This document shows positions 10,678 through 34,815 of a DNA stretch of 64,000 nucleotides, in pieces. Source of the stretch: Pseudomonas sp. Irchel 3E13 (lineage in GTDB: Bacteria; Pseudomonadota; Gammaproteobacteria; Pseudomonadales; Pseudomonadaceae). Location: positions 186,001-250,000 of the forward strand of contig NZ_FYDX01000009.1 of NCBI RefSeq assembly GCF_900187455.1, written 5' to 3'. The position numbers and the translations under genes were made by a program. Position 1 is the stretch's first letter. Every line of letters starts with the position of its first letter. The notes beneath the pieces were generated by a model that saw nothing but the letters and a program-made list of their open reading frames with translations, was not told where the DNA came from and ran no database searches.

Positions 10678-11982
10678 ATGCCCGTCGCTTCAAACCCATT
10701 GCTGCAAACCGGTGTCGCGGCCAAAACCGCACGCGCCCAGGCCAGCAACCTGGACAAGGCCTCGCAAGCCCTCAACGACAAGGGCCCGGACTTCTCCAAG
10801 GTCTATGCGCAGCACTCGCGGGACAAGGTCGACGTCAAGGCTGACGCGCCCGTTCGCGACCGCGATGGCGTCGACAAGTCGGCGGCAAACACCGGCAAGG
10901 CTGACGACAAGGGCAACGGCAAGGTTGCCGATAGCGGCAACGATTTGCCTGACGACAAGGACGCCCAGGCGCAGAGCGCGGACAAGGTCGACGACGCCGC
11001 CGACACCGCGAGCGCCGATGGCCAGTCGCTGGACGCCAATCTGGTGGCCGGGCAACTCACCGACGCACCGCAGGGCGCGCAGTTGTTGCAGGCGCAGGCT
11101 CAGACCATGGCCCCGGTGATCCAGGCTGCCGCTCAGCAGCCTGCCGCGGCACTGCCGGCCACGCCGGCGGAAGACGCATTCGATCCCGACAGCGATCCCC
11201 TGGCCGACCTGCCGGTGCTGCGTCTGGCCCTGGAGCAGAATGCCCAGGCCCAAGGCACGACCTCTACCCATGCCGCCAAGCCCAACGCTCAGCCGGAGAC
11301 CGCGTCTGGTCAGCCAGCCGTCAATACACTGGCGCAGATGCTTGACCCGAGCGAGGCCGAGGGCGGGAAGTCCGAAGGCGGCGAGAAAGCCTTTGCCGGG
11401 CTGATCGACGATGGCCTTAAAGACCTCAAGGGTGCGAGCAGCGACACCCGTATCGACGACTTCGCCAACCGCCTGGCCTCCCTGACCCAGGCCGCGACAC
11501 CTAAGACCGCCAATGCCGTGGCGCCCGCGCCGCTGCACCAGCCGCTGGCCATGAACCAGGGCGGCTGGACCGAGGGCCTGGTCAACCGGGTCATGTACCT
11601 CTCCAGCCAGAGCCTCAAGTCGGCGGATATCCAGCTTGAACCTGCCGAGCTCGGTCGCCTCGACATCCGCGTCAACCTGGCGTCGGACCAGGCGGCGCAG
11701 ATCACCTTCACCAGTGGGCACGCCGGGGTGCGCGATGCCCTCGAAGGCCAAGTGCACCGTCTGCGCGAGCTGTTCAACCAGCAGGGCCTGGCCCAGCCGG
11801 ACGTCAACGTTGCCGATCAATCCCGCGAGCAGCAGAACGGCCGCCAGGATGACACGCCGAAGATGAGTGGCGTGGCAGCCCGCCGCAATGCCGACGGCGC
11901 GGACACCGATGTTGCCGCTGCCACCGCGGCCGTGGAGTCGCAGGTGGTGGTCGGTTCCAGCACGGTGGATTACTTCGCCTGA
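10678..11982 (+). CDS. fliK: Flagellar hook-length control protein FliK
   Basis: 434 residues. The long N-terminal part is Asp/Ala/Gln-rich and disordered-looking, the secreted ruler. The C-terminal FliK domain (EPAELGRLDIRVNL and VHRLRELFNQQGL, about 320-385) is the part that meets FlhB to switch export from hook to filament subunits. CGGAGA precedes the ATG. It lies between a terminator and the fliL sigma-54 promoter, so it may be transcribed alone; no convincing promoter was seen upstream. Confidence 0.92.
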   Translation: MPVASNPLLQTGVAAKTARAQASNLDKASQALNDKGPDFSKVYAQHSRDKVDVKADAPVRDRDGVDKSAANTGKADDKGNGKVADSGNDLPDDKDAQAQSADKVDDAADTASADGQSLDANLVAGQLTDAPQGAQLLQAQAQTMAPVIQAAAQQPAAALPATPAEDAFDPDSDPLADLPVLRLALEQNAQAQGTTSTHAAKPNAQPETASGQPAVNTLAQMLDPSEAEGGKSEGGEKAFAGLIDDGLKDLKGASSDTRIDDFANRLASLTQAATPKTANAVAPAPLHQPLAMNQGGWTEGLVNRVMYLSSQSLKSADIQLEPAELGRLDIRVNLASDQAAQITFTSGHAGVRDALEGQVHRLRELFNQQGLAQPDVNVADQSREQQNGRQDDTPKMSGVAARRNADGADTDVAAATAAVESQVVVGSSTVDYFA

Positions 11983-16418: not shown

Positions 16419-17555
16419 ATGGCAGAGAGCGAAAGCGGTCAGGACAAAACAGAAGACCCCACCGAGAAGCGCAAGAACGACTCGCGGGAGAAGGGCGAGA
16501 TTGCCCGTTCCAAAGAGCTGAACACCGTGGCGGTGATGCTCGCCGGGGCGGGCGGGCTGCTGTCGTTCGGCGGTTACCTGGCCGAGGCGCTGATGGAAAT
16601 CATGCGCAGCAATTTCAGCCTGTCCCGGGAAGTGCTGATGGACGAGCGCTACATGGGCATTTTCCTGCTGGCGTCGGGCAAGCTGGCGATCCTCGCGACC
16701 CAGCCGGTGCTGCTGGTGCTGCTGCTGGCCGCCTTGCTCGGGCCAATCGCCCTCGGCGGCTGGCTGTTCGCTGCCGGCACCATGGCGCCCAAATTCAGCC
16801 GGATGAACCCGATGGCGGGGATCAAGCGGATGTTCTCCATGCACTCGCTGGCCGAGTTGCTCAAGGCCCTGGCCAAGTTCTTCGTGATCCTGTTGGTGGC
16901 GCTGGCGGTGTTGTCCTCGGACCGCGATGACCTGCTGGCGATCGCCAATGAGCCGCTGGACCAGGCGATTATCCACAGCGTTCAGGTGGTCGGCTGGAGC
17001 GCCCTGTGGATGGCCTGCGGGCTGCTGCTGATCGCGGCGGTGGACGTGCCGATCCAGCTTTGGCAGGCGAAGCAGAAGCTGATGATGACCAAGCAGGAAG
17101 TGCGCGACGAATACAAGGACACCGAGGGCAAGCCTGAGGTCAAGCAGCGTATTCGTCAGGTCCAGCGCGAGATGTCGCAGCGCCGGATGATGGCCGCCGT
17201 GCCCGAGGCCGACGTGATCATCACCAACCCGACCCACTACGCCGTGGCGCTCAAATACGACCCGGACAAGGGTTCGGCGCCGCTGTTGCTGGCCAAGGGC
17301 ACCGACTTCATTGCCTTGAAAATCCGCGAGATCGCGGTGCAGCACAACATCCAGTTGCTGGAATCGCCGGCGCTGGCGCGGTCGATCTACTACTCCACGG
17401 AGCTGGAAGAAGAGATTCCCGCCGGGCTTTACCTGGCGGTGGCCCAGGTGCTGGCCTACGTCTATCAGATCCGCCAGCACCAGGCGGGCAAGGGCAAGCC
17501 GCCGGAGCCGCTCAAGGATCTGCCGATTCCGCCGGATTTGCGGCGCGATTCCTGA
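16419..17555 (+). CDS. flhB: Flagellar export switch protein FlhB
   Basis: 378 residues. An N-terminal charged segment (DKTEDPTEKRKNDSREKG), four membrane helices and the cytoplasmic domain with the autocleavage motif NPTH at 270-273. Cleavage after Asn lets FliK switch export specificity. Last gene of the fliL operon. It is followed by 140 bases with a partial repeat and a sigma-54-like site. Confidence 0.97.
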   Translation: MAESESGQDKTEDPTEKRKNDSREKGEIARSKELNTVAVMLAGAGGLLSFGGYLAEALMEIMRSNFSLSREVLMDERYMGIFLLASGKLAILATQPVLLVLLLAALLGPIALGGWLFAAGTMAPKFSRMNPMAGIKRMFSMHSLAELLKALAKFFVILLVALAVLSSDRDDLLAIANEPLDQAIIHSVQVVGWSALWMACGLLLIAAVDVPIQLWQAKQKLMMTKQEVRDEYKDTEGKPEVKQRIRQVQREMSQRRMMAAVPEADVIITNPTHYAVALKYDPDKGSAPLLLAKGTDFIALKIREIAVQHNIQLLESPALARSIYYSTELEEEIPAGLYLAVAQVLAYVYQIRQHQAGKGKPPEPLKDLPIPPDLRRDS

Positions 17556-32091: not shown

Positions 32092-32427
32092 TCATCGAGG
32101 CCCGGGCAATCGCTTCAAATCCGGTGTGATATCCCGTTCCACCGGCCCCTCGTCGTTGAACCCCACCGGCATCTTGCCCTTCAATTGCCAGGCAAACGCG
32201 ATGATCTCGGCAATGGTCAGGTACAGCGCTTCCGGAATGCTGTCGCCCAGTTCCATGCGCGCCAGCAACCTCACCAGCTCGGCATTCTCGTAGATCGGCA
32301 CTTCGTGCTCGCGGGCGATCGCCAGGATCGCTTCCGCCAGTTCGTCGTCGCCCTTGGCCGTCAGGGTCGGGGCGCGGGCGCCGTCGTAGTTCAGGGCAAT
32401 CGCCTGGCGGGGTGTTTTCTTGCTCAT
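32092..32427 (-). CDS. FlhB C-terminal domain homologue (FlhX-like)
   Basis: 111 residues. It aligns along its length with the part of FlhB after the cleavage site: RQAIALNYDGARAPTLTAKG here against AVALKYDPDKGSAPLLLAKG in FlhB. No membrane helices and no NPTH motif are present. Similar free-standing proteins can replace cleaved FlhB-C in some bacteria. The start overlaps the stop of the FliK-like gene by four bases, so the two are one unit. The role in this species is inferred. Confidence 0.85.
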   Translation of the reverse strand: MSKKTPRQAIALNYDGARAPTLTAKGDDELAEAILAIAREHEVPIYENAELVRLLARMELGDSIPEALYLTIAEIIAFAWQLKGKMPVGFNDEGPVERDITPDLKRLPGPR

Positions 32428-33992
32428 GCGTTTTCATCCACCCAGCGTTGTTCCAGATGCGTGCGCGGCCCCAGCGGCGGTACGCCCTGGTGGCAGTGCA
32501 ATTCGCTGACGTTGACGCCACGTGCCACCAATCGCGCACGCAGGTCGCCCAATTGGCTTTCGATCAGTTGCGCAGTGGCCGGCAGTTCTGCCCAGAGCTG
32601 GCTGGACAGGTTGCCCTGGGTGATCTGCGCCTGGACCTGCAAGGGCCCCAGCGGGTGCAGGTCGAACGCCAGCTCGACACGCCAGAGCATTTCCAGCGGA
32701 TCACGCCGCTCGCGTTCGGGATCGGCCTGTTGTTCCTTGGTTTCTTCGCGCTGCACCTTGACCTGCATCGGCATGAATTCCGGGCCGGTGCGCAGGGGGA
32801 TTTCCAGTTGCCAGGTGGTTTGCAGGTTGCCGTCGGCGGTGGTGCCGGTTTGTTCCAGGCTTGCCAGTTGATGGCTCTGCACCCGCGAAATGGCCGCGGC
32901 GGCGAGGCGCAACAGGTGTTGCAGGTCGCCTTCTTCTTCAAGGTTCTGCAACAGCCGGGTGGGCAGCGGGAAGCTGCCAGGGTGCGGTTTCGGGGCTACC
33001 TGGCCAAGGGCGCCGAGGGCGCTGCGCACCATGCCCGGCAGGGCCTGGGCCACGATCGCTGCCGTGCTCGGGCTGAACAGGGTGCCGCCCGGCACGTTGG
33101 GCAGCAGTTGTGCCACCAGCCGCACCATCTGCGCCTTGAGGTCGGGCGCCAATTGGCCGGTGGCGCCGTTGAACAGCCGCGCTTCAAGGAACGAGCCGCT
33201 GTTGCTGAGGGCCTGGGCCACCTGGCGGGTGTCGCTGAACTGGCGGACATCCGGCAGGCTGGCGAGCAGTTTGTCCACCGCTGTGCGCACCTGCTCCGGC
33301 TGGCCGTCGTCGCTGGCGATGCGCTGCATGGCCGCGAGCATGCCCTGCAGCGAGGCCTGGCGGTTTTGCTGGGCGCTGAGGTTCTGGGCAATCGCCATCT
33401 GATCCTGTCGCCCGCTCAGGGGCACGAAGCTCAGCGCCTGGTCGCCCTGCACCCGCGCGCTGAGCAGGCTGCCCAGCGGCAGCGGGCGAGGGGAGTCGAT
33501 GGCGAGGGTCGAGCCCGCCTGGGCGGTATTGAGCAGGCTGACCAATGAGCGGTAGACCGCTGGCAGATTGCCGGTCTGCGGCTGCAGCTGGGTGGTCAGC
33601 ACCTTGCCTTGCACCAATGTGCCTTCCGGGAATTCACGGCTGTCGAGGCGGGTGAGGGTGGCGACATTGCTGGCGATGGCCTGTTGCAGCGTCAGGCTCA
33701 ACTGGTTCGAGGTCGGCTGGCTGACCAGTAACTGGCTGCCCTGGGCCAGCGGCTGGTTGGCGGTGGTCTGCACCGTCACTTGTTGGCCGTTGGCCTGCAT
33801 CAGGCGCAGGAGCAACTGAAACTCCTGGCCTACCTGACGCAGCGACAGCACTTCGCCCTTGGTCGTTTCGCCGGCGGGCACCAGATCGGGCTGGGCTTCC
33901 ACCAGCTTTACCAGCTCGCCGGTCATTGCCGCGGCACGCACCTGCGCATTGGCGGGAACCTGTGGGCCAAGGCTGTTTATTTCGCCTGTCAT
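32424..33992 (-). CDS. Second FliK-like hook-length control family protein
   Basis: 522 residues. A long Gln/Leu/Ala-rich N-terminal region without membrane segments and a C-terminal FliK domain (about 420-500; HPLGPLQVQAQITQGNLSSQ, then LRARLVARGVNV). It is distinct from the fliK at 10678 and is coupled by ATGA overlap to the FlhB-C homologue, which makes a FliK-FlhB type interaction plausible. The real function is unknown. Confidence 0.85.
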   Translation of the reverse strand: MTGEINSLGPQVPANAQVRAAAMTGELVKLVEAQPDLVPAGETTKGEVLSLRQVGQEFQLLLRLMQANGQQVTVQTTANQPLAQGSQLLVSQPTSNQLSLTLQQAIASNVATLTRLDSREFPEGTLVQGKVLTTQLQPQTGNLPAVYRSLVSLLNTAQAGSTLAIDSPRPLPLGSLLSARVQGDQALSFVPLSGRQDQMAIAQNLSAQQNRQASLQGMLAAMQRIASDDGQPEQVRTAVDKLLASLPDVRQFSDTRQVAQALSNSGSFLEARLFNGATGQLAPDLKAQMVRLVAQLLPNVPGGTLFSPSTAAIVAQALPGMVRSALGALGQVAPKPHPGSFPLPTRLLQNLEEEGDLQHLLRLAAAAISRVQSHQLASLEQTGTTADGNLQTTWQLEIPLRTGPEFMPMQVKVQREETKEQQADPERERRDPLEMLWRVELAFDLHPLGPLQVQAQITQGNLSSQLWAELPATAQLIESQLGDLRARLVARGVNVSELHCHQGVPPLGPRTHLEQRWVDENA

Positions 33993-34092: not shown

Positions 34093-34182
34093 GACCAGAC
34101 CGGTCGGCCAGGTTTTCGTTGTCACTATAACGGCCAGGCCTGTACCGACTTGAGACAGTCTGCGAAACCATAAGGCGAATCT

Positions 34183-34815
34183 GTGACTCCTCAACTCCAA
34201 GCCGTGGGCCTGGCCTGCGAGCGCGACTGGCGGATGCTCTTCGAACACCTCGAATTGCAGGTGTCGGCCGGCGACATGCTGCAGATCAGCGGTCCCAACG
34301 GCAGCGGCAAGACCAGCCTGCTGCGCCTGCTGGCCGGCCTGATGCAACCGACCCATGGCGAGGTGCTGCTCAACGGCAAGCCGCTGGCCGGGCAGGGCAC
34401 GGAACTGGCCCGCTCCCTGGTGTGGATCGGCCATGCGGCCGGGATCAAGGACCTGCTCACCCCGGAAGAAAACCTCACCTGGCTCTGCGCCCTGCACCGC
34501 CCCGCCAGCCGCGACGCCATCTGGCAGGCGCTGGAAGCGGTGGGCCTGCGCGGTTTCGAGGATGTCGCCTGTCACACCCTGTCCGCTGGTCAGCAGCGCC
34601 GTGTGGCGCTGGCCCGGCTCTACCTGGACAGCCCGTCGCTGTGGATCCTCGACGAGCCGTTCACCGCCCTCGACAAACAAGGCGTCGCGCAACTCGAAGC
34701 GCACCTGGCGCGGCACTGCGAGGAGGGCGGCATGGTCGTGCTGACCACTCACCACACGCTGGAACGCACGCCGTCCGGTTACCGTGATATCAACCTGGGG
34801 CAGTGGGCCGCATGA
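34183..34815 (+). CDS. ccmA: Cytochrome c maturation ABC transporter ATPase CcmA
   Basis: 210 residues, GTG start. Walker [12 protein letters not shown], signature [14 protein letters not shown] and Walker B LWILDEPF. With CcmB and CcmC it powers release of holo-CcmE from the inner membrane. It opens the nine-gene ccm operon and overlaps ccmB by 4 bases. Confidence 0.96.

What the first reader, a model, noticed from the sequence alone, without database searches (positions are those of the whole stretch)
32092..33992. Coupled FliK-like and autonomous FlhB-C genes
A second FliK-domain protein (522 residues) overlaps by ATGA a 111-residue protein equal to the post-cleavage half of FlhB, beginning almost exactly after where NPTH would be. 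FliK and FlhB-C are the interacting pair of the export switch, so finding a duplicate of both domains as a two-gene unit suggests a paralogous switch, a modulator of the main one, or a repurposed pair. They lie next to ccm on the opposite strand to the flagellar cluster.
Basis: partly seen in the sequence, partly recalled or inferred. Interest (0 to 1): 0.55.

Follow-up and report, generated by a model that had tools for sequence, protein, structure and literature searches.

The report
Detached spare flagellar export switch pair
Two overlapping genes encode a free-standing copy of the part of FlhB that the flagellar protein-export switch acts on, plus a FliK-like partner; the pair is old, widespread and tied to flagella, but what it does has hardly been studied.

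Summary
On the minus strand a 522-residue protein with a FliK C-terminal domain (32424-33992) overlaps by ATGA a 111-residue FlhB-C protein (32092-32427). It is not a recent duplicate of the main pair: FlhB-C-only proteins (FlhX) split cleanly from FlhB-C (131 vs 60 tips). In a class sample, all 54 other FlhX loci have a FliK-like gene upstream; the unit tracks FlhB and is broken in one genome without FlhB. The FliK-like protein shares only its C-terminal domain and last residues with FliK; residues 34-112 are modelled as an OB-like barrel. A sigma-28-type site precedes the operon in the window and in 20 of 20 congeneric loci fetched. The likely P. putida equivalent, pp4328-4329, is in print as FleQ- and partly FliA-dependent (PMC5026340, passages). 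FlhX keeps the early-substrate pocket.

Best reading: an accessory switch unit. FlhX can stand in for the FlhB C-terminal domain that FliK removes, and the FliK-like partner controls it. Docking, binding and phenotype are untested; no complex was predicted. The kind is known (H. pylori 'spare part' FlhX, title seen only); near-obligate coupling, partner architecture and sigma-28 footprint are the additions.

The parts
32424..33992 (-). FliK-like gene, 522 aa (PF02120 at residues 435-506), upstream gene of the pair
   Evidence: model mc6d2090eb574
32092..32427 (-). FlhX-like gene: stand-alone FlhB post-cleavage domain, 111 aa, no membrane part, no NPTH site
   Evidence: fold matches FlhB CCD chains 3b1s and 3b0z, TMt 0.81-0.85
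32424..32427 (-). ATGA stop/start overlap joining the two genes
   Evidence: a 4-nt overlap also in 41 of 53 other loci of the class, with start codons chosen by a rule that favours it
33657..33893 (-). OB-like small beta-barrel modelled near the N-terminus of the FliK-like protein (about residues 34-112)
   Evidence: best Z 8.1, 60 residues, rmsd 1.7, then many other OB-fold proteins. Whether this segment or residues 118-190 is the family's conserved N-terminal domain is unresolved
32484..32930 (-). C-terminal T3S4 / substrate-specificity domain of the FliK-like protein (about residues 355-503)
   Evidence: PscP SS domain 5cuk, E 0.02, Z 6.3, 79 residues, rmsd 3.3
32427..32444 (-). C-terminal tail WVDENA, matching the loose FliK-type tail ([hydrophobic]D..[AVI] at the end), not the strict form
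34128..34153 (-). sigma-28 (FliA)-type promoter TCAAG-N14-GCCGTTA pointing at the FliK-like gene; one base off the recalled consensus GCCGATA
   Evidence: only exact match in the window to TCAAG-N14-GCCGWTA, a pattern set after seeing the conserved block; present in 20 of 20 congeneric loci, 18 with GCCGTTA and 2 with GCCGCTA
10678..11982 (+). main fliK (434 aa), for comparison
16419..17555 (+). main flhB (378 aa, with NPTH), for comparison
34183..34815 (+). ccmA (named by eye and by recall), divergent neighbour

Best explanation
The pair is an accessory unit of the flagellar export-specificity switch. [quoted passage not shown] It can take the CCD's place on the FlhB stub. The FliK-like partner, made from the same mRNA, uses a FliK-type switch domain and C-terminal tail to bind FlhX and control when it docks or leaves; its N-terminal part is unlike the FliK ruler region, so it probably acts inside the cell. 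Transcription is tied to the flagellar cascade, in this genus at least partly by sigma-28, so that more is made once hooks are complete. SHOWN HERE OR IN PRINT: gene anatomy, co-inheritance with each other and with FlhB, separate ancestry, conserved early-substrate pocket, conserved tail, OB-like barrel (prediction), sigma-28 site, and published partial FliA dependence of the likely P. putida orthologue. INFERRED: FlhX docking on the FlhB stub in this organism, FliK-like/FlhX binding, cytoplasmic action, and the effect on mode of secretion.
For: Fold of FlhX = FlhB CCD. The early-substrate pocket of FlhB (A286, P287, A341, L344 as listed in PMC13344023) maps, by my own residue count, to A19, P20, A73, I76: A 51/55 and 70/76, P 55/55 and 76/76, A 55/55 and 76/76, L or I 54/55 and 70/76 in FlhX of the class and of other phyla. 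54 of 54 fetched class loci have the FliK-like gene upstream: 53 adjoining and PF02120-positive, 1 about 430 bp away (L107; PF02120 hit). Other phyla: 52 of 71 upstream ORFs carry PF02120, with whole-length profile homology to the class partner (99.8%, 338 columns; Bacillus partner 92.9%). Link to FlhB: 53/79 vs 2/61, Fisher 4e-16. FliK-type tail in 54 FliK-like proteins of the class: 41 strict, 36 loose; background 2 and 2 of 178 frames; main FliK 11 and 18 of 21. In Salmonella the last five FliK residues are proposed to act on the CCD (PMC13344023). Distance correlation FlhX/FliK-like 0.76, partial 0.57 given FlhB, p 0.0005 in 2000 permutations, 24 genomes. Sigma-28 site in 20 of 20 congeneric loci; P. 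putida promoter 2- to 3-fold FliA- and 1.8-fold FleQ-dependent (PMC5026340).
Against: No binding, docking or phenotype was tested; no complex was predicted. FlhX lacks R35, which 59 of 60 FlhB rows have (FlhX 1/55 and 6/76; window L), and mostly lacks D28 and R53 (11/55, 1/76 and 8/55, 0/76), though the window protein keeps both; docking may differ. The OB-like barrel is not settled as a family feature: the class alignment puts the conserved N-terminal domain on residues about 118-190, the alignment used for the model puts it on about 34-112, and neither segment alone matches the other-phyla profile (1.0% and 10.2%). Outside the class only 14 of 25 genomes searched have two or more PF02120 matches, 10 have one, 1 none, and some FlhX genes have no FliK-like neighbour (L140, L141, L175, L185, L188, L191). 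Late expression is not general: in H. pylori HP1575 is listed above the Class II heading (PMC2864241, passage), and outside the genus only 8 of 47 scanned loci have a near-perfect sigma-28 site. 26 of 79 class genomes with a full-length FlhB-family protein do without FlhX.
Confidence: 0.4

Rival explanations
1. Back-up part: FlhX merely substitutes for a lost or damaged FlhB CCD and the FliK-like protein stabilises or delivers it; no regulatory role under normal conditions.
For: Title of Wand et al. [quoted passage not shown] Fold and pocket conserved.
Against: A pure back-up would hardly be kept in 79 of 79 sampled genomes of the genus with a conserved promoter-like site and a dedicated FliK-domain partner.
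Confidence: 0.24
2. Decoy or holdase: FlhX stays in the cytosol and uses its conserved pocket to hold rod/hook subunits or FliK itself away from the gate after the switch; the FliK-like protein sets how much FlhX is free.
For: Pocket conserved while R35 of FlhB is lost in nearly all FlhX; the sigma-28 site implies more expression after hook completion.
Against: The spare-part title from H. pylori points to action at the export gate; a decoy needs large amounts, and the published P. putida promoter shows only 1.8- to 3-fold regulation.
Confidence: 0.18
3. Second ruler: the FliK-like protein is exported like FliK and measures a second length, with FlhX tuning FliK/FlhB contact.
For: PF02120 domain and FliK-type tail.
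Against: Only the C-terminal 67 columns match main FliK; part of the N-terminal half is modelled as a folded barrel; the sigma-28 site suggests expression after the hook is done.
Confidence: 0.11
4. Repurposed pair with a role outside flagellar export.
For: Sits beside ccm genes, on the strand opposite to the flagellar cluster.
Against: 53 of 55 carriers in the class sample also have full-length FlhB; broken in the complete single-contig genome without it (G105/L116); sigma-28 site; FleQ/FliA dependence in P. putida.
Confidence: 0.04

Closest known systems
FlhX / FlhB-C-only proteins (H. pylori HP1575, C. jejuni Cj0848c; NCBIfam TIGR00789 'FlhB-like')
   Same: Short, FlhB-CCD fold, no membrane part, co-occurs with full FlhB; one clade with other-phyla FlhX (HP1575 and Cj0848c themselves were not compared).
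   Different: Window protein scores 73.3 bits, below the TIGR00789 cut-off of 117.35; it has about 25 residues beyond the domain; its FliK-like partner is described here.
P. [quoted passage not shown]
   Same: Same gene order and content; FleQ- and partly FliA-dependent promoter fits the site found here. PP_4328 is the first gene of a published flagellar deletion set (PMC7468518, passages).
   Different: Reported as a promoter; no function given in the passages read. Sequence identity to the window proteins was not tested.
FliK / FlhB-CCD specificity switch (Salmonella; PMC13344023, abstract, sections 3, 11, 12, 14 and passages)
   Same: C-terminal FliK domain and tail, CCD fold and early-substrate pocket.
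   Different: Here the CCD-like domain is a separate protein, not cleaved from FlhB; the FliK-like protein matches FliK only in its C-terminal domain.
flhX-fliK of Nitratiruptor (PMC9321776, passage)
   Same: FlhX and a FliK gene named together outside the main flagellar cluster.
   Different: Mentioned only as a locus in the passage read.

Membership tests
FlhX group (FlhB-C-only proteins) | Homologous to the FlhB cytoplasmic C-terminal domain, without the membrane part | tested here: met
   PF01312 positions 262-334 only; fold match to FlhB CCD
FlhX group (FlhB-C-only proteins) | Separate clade from the C-terminal domains of full-length FlhB | tested here: met
   60 FlhB vs 131 FlhX tips split without error, local support 0.885, about 80 aligned residues
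FlhX group (FlhB-C-only proteins) | Occurs with a full FlhB | tested here: met
   also 24 of 25 genomes of the other-phyla loci, one of them with a stop codon inside FlhB
FlhX group (FlhB-C-only proteins) | Can replace the FlhB CCD in export | not testable with these tools
   known to me only from the title of Wand et al. 2006
NCBIfam TIGR00789 flhB_rel | Score above the curated cut-off (117.35 bits) | tested here: not met
   73.3 bits; 0 of 199 genomes of the phylum over the cut-off, 2 of 14 control genomes over it. Not filed as a TIGR00789 member.
FliK (flagellar hook-length control protein) | PF02120 C-terminal domain over the cut-off | tested here: met
   58.6 bits, cut-off 29.8
FliK (flagellar hook-length control protein) | N-terminal export/ruler region related to that of FliK | tested here: not met
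   the profile match to 21 main FliK proteins covers only the C-terminal 67 columns. Not filed as a FliK.
FliK (flagellar hook-length control protein) | Conserved C-terminal tail | tested here: met
   strict 41 of 54, loose 36 of 54, background 2 of 178 each; the window protein meets the loose form only
FliK (flagellar hook-length control protein) | Is exported and sets hook length | not testable with these tools
   bench test needed
P. putida pp4328-4329 operon | FliK-domain gene followed by FlhB-domain gene under a FleQ/FliA-responsive promoter | tested here: inconclusive
   gene order and FliA-type site met; sequence identity to PP4328/4329 and activity not tested

The most novel reading that the evidence does not exclude
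The flagellar export switch is resettable in bacteria that carry this pair. After FliK removes the built-in CCD of FlhB, sigma-28-driven FlhX re-occupies the FlhB stub and lets early substrates dock again (repair, new growth), and the FliK-like protein removes it again, so the pair is a second, reversible switch rather than a copy of the first.
Probability: 0.2. Interest if true: 0.82.

Novelty: new member of a known kind. Interest (0 to 1): 0.46.

Why it matters
The 2026 Salmonella model (PMC13344023) calls the flagellar switch irreversible and rests it on loss of the FlhB CCD. Many flagellated bacteria carry a second, free CCD-like protein with its own FliK-domain partner. If it docks on the FlhB stub, the switch can be held, reset or repaired after hook completion, which is directly testable in P. 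putida or B. subtilis.

Tried and rejected
Fusion idea: long open frames at some FlhX hits (up to 775 aa) looked like FliK-FlhX fusions; reading them showed overlapping open frames, not fusions. Recent-duplication idea: rejected. Injectisome idea: G135 (only a 286-bit match, read by me as SctU-type) and G125 (a second full-length match) have no FlhX, so the unit follows flagella. Sigma-54 site upstream: none found with two consensus patterns in the congeneric intergenic regions. OB-like domain as a family feature: left open. Locus-tag search PA1473/PA1474/HP1575/Cj0848c/Cj0849c: 18 papers, passages of 7 opened; the PA1473 hits of one were not about this gene, PA1474 and Cj0849c were list entries. 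PP4328/PP4329: 9 papers, 2 opened (PMC5026340, and PMC7468518). ylqG/ylqH (B. subtilis names, recalled): one of 5 papers opened, a table of mutations. FlhB E230/R320: the paper opened says nothing on R320. Searches for print on this pair; among what I opened I found no functional study of the FliK-like partner, and the library lacks most subscription papers. Foldseek gave no match at E <= 0.001 for the FliK-like model; the VIA-align list is dominated by the barrel, so absence of other families there is not evidence.

Dropped rows: 7 of 54 class loci were left out of the sigma-28 scan (short upstream sequence, or L107 without an adjoining ORF). Of 80 loci, 2 are full-length FlhB (L144, L184) and 7 have no upstream ORF of 80 aa, 3 of them near contig ends. 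16 of 71 upstream ORFs were left out of structure alignment A5, and 24 of 78 FlhX loci out of A6. One FlhB locus without NPTH (L040) was left out of the tree. Congeneric promoter and synteny loci are 20 of 79 genomes, the first 20 of the 26 C-terminal-only rows listed; L240 was left out of the alignment but is counted. Main FliK proteins: 20 fetched of 76 that I count besides the window's own.

Full report
1. Observation. Minus-strand ORFs of 522 aa (32424-33992) and 111 aa (32092-32427) exist exactly as described and overlap by ATGA. The first carries PF02120, the FliK C-terminal domain (58.6 bits, cut-off 29.8); the second matches only positions 262-334 of PF01312, the FlhB family (67.8 bits, cut-off 24.4). 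The window's main FliK (10678-11982, +) and FlhB (16419-17555, +) are separate, and the whole genome has no other match to either family at E <= 0.001.

2. Conservation. In 79 genomes of the genus, total PF01312 matches minus full-length ones leave one further match in 78 and two in G034; 26 of these rows were listed and are C-terminal-only, the rest were cut from the list. In 140 genomes of the class, 79 have a full-length FlhB-family protein and 55 a C-terminal-only match (FlhX); 53 of the 55 fall among the 79 (Fisher 4e-16). The two exceptions are G116 (590 contigs, 7% contamination) and G105, a single-contig genome without full-length FlhB in which the FlhX gene is interrupted (both fragments found, about 270 bp apart, L116): the unit decays when flagella are gone.

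3. The partner is fixed in the class. I fetched all 54 other class loci with a C-terminal-only match. In 53 an upstream same-strand ORF adjoins FlhX, 41 of them with a 4-nt overlap, with start codons chosen by a rule that favours this overlap. All 53, plus the window protein, match PF02120 (54 of 54 scanned); some are cut by contig ends. In the 54th (L107) the FliK-like gene ends about 430 bp upstream and matches PF02120. Conversely, 52 of 53 genomes with FlhB and FlhX hold two PF02120 proteins (G154 one), and 0 of 26 with FlhB but no FlhX do (25 hold one, G135 none; Fisher 5e-20).

4. Beyond the class. A scan with a typed consensus returned the best 80 of 319 confirmed loci, from many phyla: 78 FlhX and 2 full-length FlhB. 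Of 71 upstream ORFs, 52 match PF02120 at E <= 0.01. Profile comparison of class partners with these gives 99.8% over 338 columns; a Bacillus partner without a PF02120 hit still aligns over 300 columns at 92.9%, so 52 may be a lower bound. Counter-examples: in several Desulfobacterota-type loci FlhX stands alone upstream of what I read by eye as flgF-flgG-flgA-flgH, and in L140 and L141 it has no FliK-like neighbour. Of 25 of these genomes searched whole, 24 have both a full-length FlhB (one with a stop inside) and FlhX, but only 14 have two or more PF02120 matches, 10 have one and 1 none.

5. What the proteins are. FlhX: AlphaFold model, mean pLDDT 78; best PDB matches are the cleaved FlhB chains 3b1s and 3b0z, TMt 0.81-0.85. 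In a tree of about 80 aligned residues, 131 FlhX and 60 FlhB-C sequences split without error, local support 0.885. FlhX keeps the early-substrate pocket. R35, present in 59 of 60 FlhB rows, is found in 1 of 55 and 6 of 76 FlhX (class, other phyla; window L). D28 and R53 (57 and 58 of 60 in FlhB) are found in 11/55 and 1/76, and 8/55 and 0/76; the window protein keeps both. FliK-like: AlphaFold model of the window protein on 55 of the 71 other-phyla sequences, mean pLDDT 68, confident at about 41-90 and 361-500. Residues about 34-112 form an OB-like barrel (best Z 8.1, near the level the tool calls middling, followed by many OB-fold proteins). Residues 401-503 match the PscP specificity-switch domain (E 0.02, prob 1.00; Z 6.3); no Foldseek match reached E 0.001. 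Against 21 main FliK proteins only 67 C-terminal columns align (96.8%). Open point: the class alignment places the conserved N-terminal domain of the family on residues about 118-190, the alignment used for the model on about 34-112; each segment alone matches the other-phyla profile only at 1.0% and 10.2%. They may be two diverged copies.

6. The tail. In Salmonella the last five residues of FliK are proposed to act on the FlhB CCD, which is lost at the switch in a FliK-dependent way, and loss of the CCD is reported to prevent early secretion (PMC13344023: abstract, sections 3, 11, 12, 14 and passages seen). In the class 41 of 54 FliK-like proteins match a strict tail motif and 36 a looser one; main FliK 11 and 18 of 21; 2 and 2 of 178 background frames, which are all stop-to-stop frames of 150 residues or more in the window, coding or not, the window's own FliK proteins included. 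The window protein meets only the loose form. In other phyla 14 and 32 of 71 upstream ORFs match. Distances of FlhX and the last 190 residues of its partner correlate (r 0.76; partial 0.57 given FlhB; p 0.0005 in 2000 permutations; 24 genomes); FlhB is an imperfect control for species history.

7. Regulation. Upstream of the FliK-like gene lies TCAAG-N14-GCCGTTA (34128-34153, minus strand), one base off the sigma-28 consensus as I recall it. It is the only exact match in the window to TCAAG-N14-GCCGWTA, a pattern set after seeing the conserved block (with one mismatch allowed 2 matches, 0.20 expected). All 20 congeneric loci fetched carry it (18 GCCGTTA, 2 GCCGCTA). In other families of the class 8 of 47 scanned upstream regions reach 11 of 12 positions, against 0.3% of shuffles (0.15 expected); 2 of 47 do so on the reverse strand. 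In print, the P. [quoted passage not shown]); PP_4328 is the first gene of a published flagellar deletion set (PMC7468518, passages). That pp4328-4329 is the orthologue is inferred from content and order. In H. pylori HP1575 is listed above the Class II heading (PMC2864241, passage), so late expression is not general.

8. Interpretation. The unit is an accessory of the flagellar export switch, not a copy of it. The most likely mechanism is that FlhX substitutes for the FlhB CCD on the FlhB stub and its FliK-like partner governs that occupancy through a FliK-type domain and tail. Docking, binding and effect are inference; the H. pylori 'spare part' result is known to me only from the title. Rivals are a plain back-up part, a cytosolic decoy for early substrates, a second ruler, or an unrelated role.

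9. Novelty. FlhX is known, and the pair is in print as a P. putida promoter and as 'flhX-fliK' in Nitratiruptor (PMC9321776, passage). In what I opened from the searches I found no study of the FliK-like partner, of the near-obligate coupling, or of the conserved sigma-28-type site beyond the P. putida promoter data; that paper's promoter alignment (S4 Fig) was not seen.

Noticed in passing
L175, L185, L188, L191 (Desulfobacterota-type loci): FlhX stands alone, without a FliK-like neighbour, upstream of genes that read by eye as flgF-flgG-flgA-flgH; a possible ancestral or alternative setting of FlhX beside rod genes.
   Followed up: partly
L116 (genome G105): Single-contig genome without full-length FlhB in which the FliK-like gene and an interrupted FlhX remain: a relic of lost flagella.
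   Followed up: partly
G034: The one genome of 79 in the genus with two FlhB-family matches beyond the full-length one.
   Followed up: no
FlhX positions 28, 35, 53 in P0001 numbering: FlhB has near-invariant D, R and R here; FlhX of other phyla almost never does. The window FlhX keeps D28 and R53 but has L35. Likely marks of FlhB-specific function.
   Followed up: partly
L121 genome G426, contig C520:3843-5759: One long open frame (1346 residues) contains three PF02120 matches in a row.
   Followed up: no
G422:C83:20036-21057: FlhB-family match with an in-frame TGA and a second piece beside it; broken gene or assembly error.
   Followed up: no
P0002 residues about 34-112 and 118-190 (window 33657-33893 and about 33423-33641): Both segments read like the same beta-rich motif; two alignments disagree on which is the family's conserved N-terminal domain, and neither alone matches the other-phyla profile well.
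   Followed up: partly
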